From Ramlibacter montanisoli (GTDB taxonomy: Bacteria; Pseudomonadota; Gammaproteobacteria; Burkholderiales; Burkholderiaceae_C), in NCBI RefSeq assembly GCF_013087525.1, contig NZ_JABFCS010000001.1, forward strand, positions 1,364,001 through 1,428,000: a stretch of DNA of 64,000 nucleotides, given 5' to 3'. This document shows positions 6,932-13,546 of this stretch, piece after piece. The translations under genes and the position numbers were made by a program. Under the pieces are notes generated by a model. That model had not been told where the DNA came from, searched no databases, and saw only the letters and a list, made by a program, of their open reading frames with translations. Position 1 is the stretch's first letter, and every line of letters begins with the position of its first letter.

Positions 6932-9900
6932 ATGGAAGTTCTGGCGAAACTGCCTGCCGCTGAGCATCGAGACGGGGACTTGAAGTTGGTGCTGAAGGCC
7001 CTGTCGGCCTTCCGACGCGGCGAGCAAGGCGTGACGCTGCCCACGGAGTGGGATGGTCTGTTCGGGAAGATCGCCGCGGAATTCAACGAGCTGTCGTCGC
7101 AGACCGGCCGCACCTGCACGCGGCTGAAGTCGGTCGCGGCCGGCCCCCATACCGGCGCCAAGGCGGGCCGCCGGGTGTCCGACGACAAGCTCACCGGTTT
7201 CTGGCAGGAGAACGTCGCCAGCGTCAACAGCCTGCTGGACGAAGTGGAACTCACCGGCGAGCGCACGCGCACGCTGCTGGGCGGACTCACCGAACTGAAG
7301 AAGGGCAACTCGGGCGCGGAACTGCCGCACGACTGGACCGGCCTGTTCGGCAAGGTGGCCGACGCCTTCAACGACGTCGTGGCGCAGAACGTGCGCATGT
7401 CGCAGGAGCTTTCGCGCCTGTCGCGCGTGGTCGGCAAGGAGGGCAAGCTGAAGGAGCGGGCGAGCATGCCCAGCACCGACGGCTTCTGGCGGGACTCCGC
7501 CGAATCGATCAACTCCCTGATCTCCGACCTGGTGCACCCGACGTCCGAAGTGGCGCGGGTGATCGGTGCGGTGGCCCAGGGCGACCTGTCCAAGTCCATG
7601 GCCCTGGAGGCCGACGGGCGCGCGCTGGAAGGCGAATTCCTGCGCACCGCCATGACCATCAACAAGATGGTGCAGCAGCTGGGCACCTTCTCCGCCGAAG
7701 TGACGCGGGTGGCGCGCGAAGTGGGTACCGAAGGGAAGCTGGGTGGACAGGCGGAAGTGCAGGGCGTGGCCGGAACCTGGAAGGACCTGACCGACTCCGT
7801 GAACTCCATGGCCGGCAACCTGACGGCCCAGGTTCGGAACATCGCGGAAGTGACCAAGGCCGTGGCGGCCGGTGACCTGTCCAAGAAGATCACGGTGGAC
7901 GTGAAAGGCGAGATCCTGGAACTGAAGAACACCATCAACACGATGGTGGACCAGCTGCGAAGCTTCGCTTCGGAAGTGACGCGCGTGGCGCGCGAAGTGG
8001 GCACCGAAGGCAAGCTGGGCGGCCAGGCCGACGTGCAGGGCGTGGCCGGGACCTGGAAGGACCTGACCGAGTCGGTGAACTTCATGGCCGGCAACCTGAC
8101 CTCGCAGGTGCGCAACATCGCCGACGTGACCAAGGCGGTGGCGGCCGGCGACCTGTCCAAGAAGATCACGGTGGACGTGAAGGGCGAGATCCTGGAGCTG
8201 AAGAACACCATCAACACCATGGTGGACCAGCTGCGATCCTTCGCCTCGGAAGTGACGCGGGTGGCGCGCGAGGTGGGTACCGAAGGCAAGCTGGGCGGCC
8301 AGGCCGACGTGCAGGGCGTGGCCGGTACCTGGAAGGACCTGACCGACTCGGTGAACTCCATGGCCGGCAACCTGACGGCCCAGGTGCGCAACATCGCGGA
8401 CGTGACCAAGGCGGTGGCGGCCGGCGACCTGTCCAAGAAGATCACCGTGGACGTGAAGGGCGAGATCCTGGAGCTGAAGAACACCATCAACACCATGGTG
8501 GACCAGCTGCGATCCTTCGCCTCGGAAGTGACGCGGGTGGCGCGCGAGGTGGGTACCGAAGGCAAGCTGGGCGGCCAGGCCGACGTGCAGGGCGTGGCCG
8601 GCACCTGGAAGGACCTGACCGACTCCGTGAACTCGATGGCCGGCAACCTCACGGCCCAGGTGCGGAACATCGCGGAAGTGACGACCGCCGTGGCAGCCGG
8701 TGACCTGTCCAAGAAGATCACGGTGGACGTGAAGGGCGAGATCCTGAGCTGAAGAACACCATCAACACGATGGTGGACCAGCTCTCCTCCTTCGCTTCGG
8801 AAGTGACCCGCGTGGCGCGCGAAGTGGGTACCGAAGGAAAACTGGGAGGGCAGGCCGACGTGCAGGGCGTGGCCGGTACCTGGAAGGACCTGACCGAGTC
8901 GGTGAACTTCATGGCCGGCAACCTGACCTCGCAGGTGCGCAACATCGCGGACGTGACCAAGGCGGTGGCGGCCGGCGACCTGTCCAAGAAGATCACCGTG
9001 GACGTGAAGGGCGAGATCCTGGAGCTGAAGAACACCATCAACACCATGGTGGACCAGCTCTCCTCGTTCGCGTCGGAAGTGACGCGGGTGGCGCGGGAGG
9101 TGGGTACCGAAGGCAAGCTGGGTGGCCAGGCCGACGTGCAGGGCGTGGCCGGTACCTGGAAGGACCTGACCGATTCGGTGAACTCGATGGCCGGCAACCT
9201 GACGGCCCAGGTGCGCAACATCGCCGACGTGACCAAGGCGGTGGCGGCCGGCGACCTGTCCAAGAAGATCACGGTGGACGTGAAGGGCGAGATCCTGGAG
9301 CTGAAGAACACCATCAACACCATGGTGGACCAGCTGCGATCCTTCGCCTCGGAAGTGACGCGGGTGGCGCGCGAGGTGGGTACCGAAGGCAAGCTGGGCG
9401 GCCAGGCGGAAGTGCAGGGCGTGGCCGGCACCTGGAAAGACCTGACCGACAACGTGAACTCCATGGCCGGCAACCTGACGGCCCAGGTGCGCAACATCGC
9501 CGACGTGACCAAGGCGGTGGCGGCCGGCGACCTGTCCAAGAAGATCACCGTGGACGTGAAGGGCGAGATCCTGGAGCTGAAGAACACCATCAACACCATG
9601 GTGGACCAGCTGCGTTCCTTCGCCTCGGAAGTGACCCGGGTGGCGCGGGAAGTGGGTACCGAAGGCAAGCTGGGCGGCCAGGCCGACGTGCAGGGCGTGG
9701 CCGGCACCTGGAAGGACCTGACCGATTCGGTGAACTCCATGGCCGGCAACCTGACGGCCCAGGTGCGGAACATCGCGGAGGTGACGACCGCCGTGGCGGC
9801 CGGCGACCTGTCCAAGAAGATCACGGTGGACGTGAAGGGCGAGATCCTGAGCTGAAGAACACCATCAACACGATGGTGGACCAGCTGCGTTCCTTCGCCT

Positions 9901-12900: not shown

Positions 12901-13546
12901 GCTGGAGGACGGCTTCGGCGGCGTCGACCCGCGCGAATACCGCCGCGCCATCGCGGGGCAGGCGAGCATCGGCCCGGTGCCGCTGGTCCTCTACCGCGGC
13001 GAGGAGGGCGCCCGCCACACCTGGCATTCGGACGAGGGCATCACGGTGCAGGAAGTGCACGGCGGCGCGCGCCTGTTCGACGCGGCGCTGATCGCGCTGC
13101 ACCGCAGCCTGGCCCGGCTGCCCGAGGTCAAGCGCAACGTGATCGACAACGTCTACGAGTCCGCCAAGCCGCTCGCCGGCAAGCGCGTGCTCATCGTTGA
13201 CGACGACATGCGCAACATCTTCGCGCTGGCGACCGTGCTGGAAGAGCACGGCATGGACATCGTCTGGGCCGACAACGGCCGCGAAGCCATCAACCGGGTG
13301 GCCAACGACCCGGGCATCCAGGTCGTGCTCATGGACATCATGATGCCGGAGATGGACGGCATGGCGACCATGAAGGAGATCCGCAAGCTCCCGCAAGGCC
13401 GCAACCTGCCTATGATTGCGGTCACCGCGAAGGCGATGAAGGGAGACCGCGAGAAGTGCATCGAGGCAGGGGCCTGGGATTACCTGGCCAAGCCGGTGAA
13501 CACGCCGGACCTGCTCGCAGTGCTGCGCGCGTGGCTGCATCAGTAG
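6932..13546 (+). CDS. Giant soluble poly-HAMP hybrid histidine kinase (three frameshifts)
   Basis: Reads as about 2,205 residues once three one-base deletions are repaired: near 8748 and 9848 (CTGAGCTGAAG for CTGGAGCTGAAG) and near 10502 (GGGGGCC for GGGCGGCC). Order: divergent HAMP-like segments (to 7696), eleven 92-residue HAMP units (7697-10729), a GAF domain (about 10790-11230), a Gln/Glu-rich coiled coil, HisKA with MSHELRTPLNSLLI, HATPase with LLSNAFKFTHQG, DTGIGI and GGTGLGLAI, a receiver (VTLDMHLPDMAGW), a receiver-like region (VVLEDGFGG) whose phospho-acceptor is uncertain, and a canonical receiver (VLIVDDDMRN, VLMDIMMPEMDG). There is no membrane span or signal peptide. The layout resembles fungal group III (Nik1-type) kinases. 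ATG 6932 is preferred to 6920 because GGGGGA precedes it. Confidence 0.9.
7697..10729 (+). repeat. Eleven tandem 276-bp HAMP-coding units
   Basis: Units begin at 7697, 7973, 8249, 8525, 8800, 9076, 9352, 9628, 9903, 10179 and 10455. Spacing is 276 bp, or 275 where a base is missing. Each encodes a 92-residue module from EVTRVAREVGTEGKLGG through GTWKDLTDSVN and GDLSKKITVDVKGEI to VDQLRSFAS. The first ten are nearly identical even at the DNA level; the eleventh (from 10455) is clearly diverged. Variation between units is concentrated at a few codons (ADV/AEV/AYV, NSM/NFM, TAQ/TSQ). Confidence 0.95.

What the first reader, a model, noticed from the sequence alone, without database searches (positions are those of the whole stretch)
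6932..13546. Eleven near-identical HAMP units in a soluble giant hybrid kinase
The kinase carries 276-bp tandem units that are almost identical in DNA, not only in protein, while the last unit is diverged. This implies recent amplification or ongoing gene conversion. The repeat number could vary between cells and tune signalling, as proposed for poly-HAMP rulers. The architecture matches fungal group III (Nik1/Bos1) osmosensing kinases, which are fungicide targets, yet here in a bacterium and with more units than usual.
Basis: partly seen in the sequence, partly recalled or inferred. Interest (0 to 1): 0.7.

Follow-up and report, generated by a model that had tools for sequence, protein, structure and literature searches.

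The report
Ordinary giant HAMP-array signalling kinase
A Ramlibacter-type bacterium carries a giant signalling kinase with a row of eleven repeated 92-residue HAMP units, a member of a bacterial family that resembles the fungal kinases hit by fungicides; its closest full-length relatives have the same number of units, its three apparent gene breaks are likely sequencing errors, and the units have likely been partly homogenised by copying from one another.

Summary
The array is real: a 276-bp period at 7655-10593, eleven units plus a diverged one upstream. Two things were missed. As assembled, the gene is broken by three single-base losses inside the array. Frame changes also occur in 11 of the 29 other genes compared in the window, against 2 of 44 and 3 of 39 in two relatives, so they are likely assembly errors. 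And the array is not newly amplified: the nine most similar full-length orthologs carry the same eleven units, with nearly the same residues at each position. 'Almost identical DNA' is too strong: inner units are 88-97% identical, with about 20% of silent sites different. Silent codons are still more alike within a gene than between species (0 of 2000 permutations), most of all in this window, which supports gene conversion between units. The protein belongs with the bacterial poly-HAMP hybrid kinases (AskA/AskB of Myxococcus; solved relative PDB 9trk) and resembles fungal group III/Nik1 kinases. A second hybrid kinase lies directly downstream, as AskC lies behind AskB. Twelve units is unremarkable: 56 full-length named relatives have 2 to 16. 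Osmosensing, phenylpyrrole response and copy-number tuning are untested. New member of a known kind, with one interesting evolutionary pattern.

The parts
6920..7654 (+). N-terminal part of the kinase: degenerate HAMP-like segments before the array
   Evidence: ORF 6920-8752; residues 112-393 of window 6920-8206 align to PDB 9trk at 388 bits
7367..7630 (+). diverged twelfth unit, just upstream of the regular array
   Evidence: 50.9 bits to the unit profile
7655..10687 (+). array of eleven 276-bp (92-residue) HAMP units, starting at 7655, 7931, 8207, 8483, 8758, 9034, 9310, 9586, 9861, 10137, 10413
   Evidence: HAMP matches
8744..8752 (+). first frame break (single-base loss in unit 4)
   Evidence: intact copies exist in relatives
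9847..9855 (+). second frame break (same kind of loss at the same column, unit 8)
10500..10547 (+). third frame break (single-base loss in unit 11)
10796..11209 (+). GAF domain
   Evidence: PF13185
11444..11647 (+). HisKA with the phospho-acceptor histidine motif at 11453
   Evidence: PF00512; motif
11789..12157 (+). HATPase_c
   Evidence: PF02518; motifs
12401..12700 (+). first receiver domain (phospho-acceptor aspartate motif at 12533); ends approximate
   Evidence: two Response_reg stretches; motifs
13187..13525 (+). last receiver domain
   Evidence: PF00072; motifs
13571..15642 (+). downstream REC-GAF-HisKA-HATPase-REC hybrid kinase, 24 bp behind the array kinase; its frame is also broken, near 14563
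   Evidence: domains of the intact relative

Best explanation
The window encodes the Ramlibacter-group version of a bacterial poly-HAMP hybrid histidine kinase, eleven 92-residue HAMP units plus a diverged one followed by GAF, kinase and receiver domains; its three frame breaks are likely assembly errors, so the cell would make one cytoplasmic protein of about 2,200 residues whose array is predicted to be a dimeric rod that restrains the kinase and relays a signal, likely shared with the hybrid kinase encoded directly downstream. Shown: the array, its period, the domains, the neighbour, the same unit count in the nine most similar full-length orthologs, and the excess of silent similarity within genes. 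Inferred from published relatives: the HAMP array controls kinase output (removing it from Candida Nik1 activates Hog1 signalling; removing most of it from DhNik1 makes that kinase constitutive), and a partner kinase encoded next door can be the part that meets the ligand (AskC behind AskB in Myxococcus). Inferred from the sequence: gene conversion between units keeps silent sites alike inside one gene, while selection keeps a position-specific set of residues and the unit number nearly constant within this clade. Unknown: the signal.
For: Array and domains. 21 isolated single-base losses against 9 gains in 33,888 aligned bases; one seven-base context lost a base in 4 of its 15 occurrences, including two of the three kinase breaks. 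Orthologs: 50 of 60 genus genomes, the own one included and some by paralogs only, match the kinase core; 24 of the 29 fetched ortholog loci have one open frame. Count: 11 strong units in the nine most similar full-length orthologs and in 15 of 24 overall. Residues: between species at the same position 1.2% different, positions shuffled 4.3%, within one gene 4.7%. Silent sites: within-gene 0.200, permuted 0.228 (sd 0.0018), 0 of 2000 reach it; codon usage alone gives a ratio of 0.985, observed 0.866; for the window 0.91 and 0.68. Solved relative: PDB 9trk, 388 bits. Partner: intact in the three relatives compared, and a similar REC or kinase frame directly downstream in 31 of 73 named loci. 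Literature: PMC7643160 section 7 and the first part of the discussion; PMC3848655 passages.
Against: No reads were seen, so the breaks could be real. Two of them sit at the same column of two look-alike units, which could also come from copying between units. One well-assembled relative (G021, flanking genes in one frame) has two frame changes of another kind inside its array: partial re-runs of a unit, either misjoined repeats or real rearrangement. Three close orthologs (G032 at 95%, G038, G042) and several partial ones are cut off in their assemblies and could not be counted. The AlphaFold model of two units is poor (mean pLDDT 60, pTM 0.43), and the best Foldseek match, Aer2 poly-HAMP, is not significant (E 0.15), so the rod is not shown here. 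Silent sites are not far from the codon-usage ceiling (0.20 within, 0.23 between, 0.29 after codon shuffling), which weakens dating; in one of ten genes (G018) within-gene pairs are not closer. The partner is absent or not recognised in 42 of 73 named loci. No phosphotransfer or ligand evidence exists for this species.
Confidence: 0.7

Rival explanations
1. The array was amplified recently in this lineage and its unit number now varies between cells, tuning signalling like an adjustable ruler.
For: Units are 88-97% identical in DNA and the window is the most homogenised of ten species. Unit number differs between species: 4 to 12 strong units in 24 genus orthologs. One relative (G055) has only six, its three inner ones with very low silent divergence, pS 0.068. 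G021 shows partial re-runs of a unit inside its array.
Against: The same eleven units with nearly the same position-specific residues occur in nine other species, so the units predate the species split. Two pairs of near-identical database proteins show equal counts. The G021 re-runs may be misjoined repeats.
Confidence: 0.12
2. The gene is truly broken in this strain: a decaying pseudogene, or a phase-variable gene split inside its repeats.
For: Three frame breaks, two of them at the same column of units 4 and 8.
Against: Frame changes in 11 of 29 other genes of the window against 2 of 44 and 3 of 39 in controls. The sites are not long homopolymers, and a shared sequence context loses a base elsewhere too. 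Assembly completeness is 90.28% although it has 2 contigs.
Confidence: 0.1
3. It is a bacterial osmosensor of the Nik1 kind that responds to phenylpyrrole fungicides.
For: Same 92-residue unit and kinase/receiver order as fungal group III kinases. Glycerol and ambruticin responses run through the AskABC kinases in Myxococcus.
Against: Purified AskA and AskB did not bind ambruticin; AskC did, weakly. In fungi fludioxonil is reported not to act directly on the kinase (PMC6433957, abstract and passages). No data for this species.
Confidence: 0.15
4. Silent similarity within the gene reflects codon preference at each column, not gene conversion.
For: Silent sites are near the codon-usage ceiling, and the position signal in silent codons lies almost wholly in codons directly beside the variable residues, as codon-context effects would give.
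Against: Column-wise codon preference would act equally between species, yet within-gene pairs are closer than different-position pairs of other species (ratio 0.866 against 0.985 from codon usage alone).
Confidence: 0.25

Closest known systems
AskA/AskB with AskC of Myxococcus xanthus (PMC7643160)
   Same: bacterial group III-like hybrid kinases with an extended poly-HAMP array, no membrane segment, several receivers; a further hybrid kinase is encoded immediately downstream of askB
   Different: the partner here has REC-GAF-HisKA-HATPase-REC domains, whereas the partner behind the Hyalangium kinase has REC-PAS-PAS-HisKA-HATPase; no Myxococcus sequence was compared; ligand and targets unknown here
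Fungal group III (Nik1/Os-1/Bos1) hybrid histidine kinases
   Same: N-terminal tandem 92-residue repeats read as HAMP pairs, HisKA, HATPase, receiver; predicted cytosolic
   Different: fungal ones have five to six repeats (PMC3848655); here eleven plus one, a GAF domain between array and kinase, and more than one receiver. No fungal sequence was compared here
PDB 9trk and 9trj, 'histidine kinase, Gcn4p'
   Same: solved N-terminal HAMP-array segments of a close relative; residues 112-393 of this kinase align at 388 bits
   Different: only part of the array and a fusion to Gcn4; one paper search with GCN4 and HAMP showed no paper on it
Aer2 poly-HAMP of Pseudomonas aeruginosa (PDB 3lnr, 3vol)
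   Same: soluble concatenated HAMP domains; weak sequence match to 3vol (E 4.8e-05)
   Different: Aer2 is a PAS/haem chemoreceptor with three plus two HAMP domains (PMC3570549, passages), not a kinase

Membership tests
bacterial poly-HAMP hybrid kinases (AskA/AskB-like) | long N-terminal array of tandem HAMP domains | tested here: met
bacterial poly-HAMP hybrid kinases (AskA/AskB-like) | histidine kinase core followed by several receivers | tested here: met
   HisKA, HATPase, two Response_reg stretches; motifs
bacterial poly-HAMP hybrid kinases (AskA/AskB-like) | no transmembrane segment | tested here: met
   simple hydropathy only, maximum 1.59 over 19 residues in the four pieces; no dedicated predictor
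bacterial poly-HAMP hybrid kinases (AskA/AskB-like) | second hybrid kinase directly downstream (as AskC) | tested here: met
   13571-15642; recurrent in 31 of 73 named loci. Orthology to AskC itself was not tested
bacterial poly-HAMP hybrid kinases (AskA/AskB-like) | response to ambruticin or glycerol through the partner | not testable with these tools
   needs experiments
fungal group III (Nik1) kinases | 92-residue HAMP-pair repeat | tested here: met
   276-bp period; 92-residue pairs in CaNik1
fungal group III (Nik1) kinases | kinase joined to the array without a further sensor domain (recalled) | tested here: not met
   GAF domain between array and HisKA
fungal group III (Nik1) kinases | fungal, feeds the HOG pathway through an HPt protein | tested here: not met
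   bacterial genome of the Ramlibacter group; pathway not testable
Aer2-type poly-HAMP receptors | PAS/haem and chemoreceptor output domains | tested here: not met
   no such domains in the window's pieces

The most novel reading that the evidence does not exclude
The array is not a uniform ruler but an ordered code: gene conversion keeps rewriting the units, yet selection holds eight residue columns of each 92-residue unit (above all 51 and 58, one heptad apart where the divergent HAMP-like half runs into the canonical HAMP) in a nearly fixed order along the rod, together with the unit number, across ten species. Other clades of the genus have their own orders, using mostly the same columns. 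The order of unit types, not their number, would then set how the rod signals.
Probability: 0.3. Interest if true: 0.6.

Novelty: new member of a known kind. Interest (0 to 1): 0.35.

Why it matters
Bacterial look-alikes of the fungicide-target Nik1 kinases are common (the core finds a match in 50 of 60 genus genomes), and of the papers I saw only the Myxococcus one tests such a bacterial kinase. The genus gives a natural series of arrays with 4 to 12 strong units and clade-specific unit orders, which would make the old question of what long HAMP arrays do directly testable. The case is also a warning: in a noisy assembly a real repeat gene can look like several genes, and high DNA identity between units need not mean recent amplification.

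Tried and rejected
Recent amplification: rejected, because the same units in nearly the same order occur in nine relatives. Pseudogene or phase variation: disfavoured by the window-wide frame changes. 'More units than usual': rejected by counts in named relatives and in the 120 listed of 7,998 scored proteins (9 to 17 strong units). Structure prediction of two units gave a weak model, and the fold search gave no significant match. One literature search for HAMP domains with tandem repeats, copy number and gene conversion found no paper holding all four terms; this is no proof that it is not in print. The position code is weaker than I first thought: in five other 11-unit orthologs, which I did not show to be one clade, residues are only slightly more alike at the same position than after shuffling (4.3% against 5.2%). 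This window and G008 have unit 7 of the other type. In the window that fits a conversion by unit 3, its nearest silent neighbour; in G008 the nearest is unit 9. The silent position signal that I hoped would show hitchhiking lies almost wholly in directly adjacent codons, so codon context is an open rival. On rechecking, G021, first dropped as broken, proved to have two frame changes of another kind inside its array; for this I lowered the main confidence from 0.72 to 0.70 and raised the ruler rival from 0.10 to 0.12.
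Full report
What is there. Tandem Repeats Finder reports a 276-bp array at 7655-10593 with 10.7 copies and 90% matches. Eleven units of 92 residues start at 7655; a diverged twelfth scores 50.9 bits just upstream. Pfam finds HAMP domains through the array and then GAF, HisKA, HATPase and receiver domains. Motifs for the phospho-accepting histidine and for two receivers with an aspartate are present; a third receiver-like stretch between them looks degenerate (reading the motifs is my own knowledge). The predicted helices give two helix-connector-helix elements per 92 residues (low confidence). 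This fits the description of Candida Nik1 as pairs of HAMP domains of 92 residues (PMC3848655, passages).

The frame is broken as assembled. ORFs run 6920-8752, 8770-9855, 9873-10547 and 10514-13546 in changing frames. Each change is a single-base loss relative to the orthologs. Some of the compared frames may not be real genes; one changes in all three genomes. Among six aligned blocks with 33,888 bases there are 21 isolated single-base losses and 9 gains in the window, some of them outside genes and perhaps natural. One seven-base context lost a base in 4 of 15 occurrences, including the breaks in units 4 and 8. Genome completeness is 90.28% in 2 contigs. I conclude that the breaks are likely sequencing or assembly errors; no reads were seen. 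Intact copies exist: 24 of the 29 fetched ortholog loci have one open frame. One exception needs telling: G021, reported 100% complete, has two frame changes inside its array that are partial re-runs of a unit, while the neighbouring genes compared keep one frame. They look unlike the window's single-base losses and could be misjoined repeats or real rearrangement.

Where it sits. The genome belongs to a genus whose named relatives are Ramlibacter and Caenimonas; Ramlibacter is in the Comamonadaceae. The kinase core finds a match in 50 of 60 genus genomes at E <= 1e-100, the own genome included and some by paralogs only. The own genome has a second poly-HAMP kinase at C1:3216375-3221634, also split into two frames.

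Number of units. Counting units of at least 100 bits, 15 of 24 orthologs have 11, five have 9, two have 12, one has 6 and one has 4. The nine most similar ones with a full frame all have 11, and each also has the diverged twelfth at 45-51 bits. Some equally close orthologs (G032 at 95%, G038, G042) are cut off in their assemblies and were not counted. Among the 80 named loci, 56 have a full frame with a kinase motif; counts at 40 bits or more run from 2 to 16, and 18 of 56 reach 12 or more. The 120 listed of 7,998 scored proteins have 9 to 17 strong units; this list is biased to long, similar proteins. Two pairs of near-identical database proteins have equal counts; each pair may be one strain. 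Variation between strains or cells could not be tested.

Age and gene conversion. Inner units 2-9 of the window differ from each other at 3-12% of DNA positions and at a mean of 19.6% of silent sites. Over ten species, residues at the same position differ by 1.2%; after shuffling positions they differ by 4.3%, and within one gene by 4.7%. The units therefore predate the species. Yet silent codons are more alike within a gene (0.200) than after permuting species at each position (0.228, sd 0.0018, 0 of 2000). Codon usage alone gives a within/between ratio of 0.985, against 0.866 observed; for the window the values are 0.91 and 0.68. In one of the ten genes, G018, the ratio is above 1. By silent distance, 33 of 80 inner units have their nearest neighbour in the same gene (7.1 expected) and 13 at the same position of another species (9.1 expected). 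The ratio of replacement to silent change is 0.119 between units of one gene and 0.031 between species at one position. The simplest reading is moderate gene conversion between units with selection keeping position-specific residues.

The code columns. Eight columns differ by position in the near clade: 10, 34, 47, 48, 51, 58, 65 and 68. Columns 10, 48, 51, 58 and 68 also vary by position in the two other groups tested. At column 51, seven of ten species share one order of F and S; this window and G008 share another that differs at unit 7, and G018 has a third. Columns 51 and 58 are coupled in the genus (S/A 73, F/S 72, F/A 29, others 22 of 196 units), less so in the named loci. In the four 9-unit orthologs the residues are likewise held by position (1.7% against 5.0% shuffled), in five other 11-unit orthologs only slightly (4.3% against 5.2%). 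Silent codons directly beside code columns keep a position signal (z -10.7), those 2-3 away a slight one (z -2.4), those 4-8 away none (z 0.3), and those 9 or more away a slight one (z -2.2) that is not seen when the window is left out (z -0.1, but then over 9 columns only). Because the signal is so local, codon context is a rival to linkage.

The neighbour. A REC-GAF-HisKA-HATPase-REC kinase starts 24 bp downstream; in the three relatives compared the intact gene is there. A similar REC or kinase frame lies directly behind the poly-HAMP kinase in 31 of 73 named loci, several only over part of their length, including the myxobacterium Hyalangium (L118). In Myxococcus xanthus the poly-HAMP kinases AskA and AskB work with AskC, encoded immediately downstream of askB; AskC but not AskA or AskB bound ambruticin VS-3, weakly (PMC7643160, section 7 and first part of the discussion). 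I propose the same division of labour here, as an inference.

Mechanism. In Candida Nik1, removing all HAMP domains activates Hog1 signalling and stops growth unless the phospho-accepting histidine is also changed, and a DhNik1 with four of five repeats removed is constitutively active (PMC3848655, title and passages). A close bacterial relative has solved structures (PDB 9trk, 9trj). The array is therefore most likely a dimeric rod that holds the kinase in check and passes conformational change to it; the signal may come from the partner kinase, the GAF domain or the N-terminal end. None of this was tested for this protein.

Verdict. A new member of a known kind. The repeat array and gene conversion hold; recent amplification, unusual length and bacterial novelty do not.

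Noticed in passing
window 905-4604 and whole window: Frame changes also in an LptF/LptG-like region, a leucyl aminopeptidase-like gene (both names from reading the translations, no family search) and other genes; the assembly carries many single-base losses, so any 'split gene' finding from this genome needs care.
   Followed up: partly
G000 C1:3216375-3221634 (L150): A second poly-HAMP hybrid kinase in the same genome, also split into two frames; the ten relatives' loci of this type that I fetched each show 15 unit matches, the weakest near 30 bits.
   Followed up: partly
L146 (G021): Array kinase with two frame changes that re-run part of a unit, in a well-assembled genome whose neighbouring genes keep one frame; misjoined repeats or real rearrangement.
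   Followed up: partly
L137 (G055): An ortholog with only six strong units and very low silent divergence among its three inner ones (pS 0.068). Its 4,070,193-base contig nearly equals the published R. tataouinensis TTB310 chromosome (4,070,194), so it is probably that strain: a candidate for real recent change of unit number.
   Followed up: partly
L149 (G059): Another single-contig genome of the genus with 63% completeness and a fragmented kinase frame, so likely a similarly noisy assembly.
   Followed up: partly
L118 (Hyalangium versicolor): Poly-HAMP kinase with 16 units and a REC-PAS-PAS-kinase frame starting about 10 bases downstream, a probable AskB/AskC pair.
   Followed up: partly
window 5477-6664: Periplasmic binding protein gene (PF13458) just upstream of the kinase; no link tested.
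   Followed up: no
genus Ramlibacter: R. tataouinensis divides as cyst-like cells and about half of its 82 histidine kinases are soluble (PMC3164672, abstract and passages); since AskABC controls Myxococcus sporulation, cyst formation is a natural phenotype to test.
   Followed up: no
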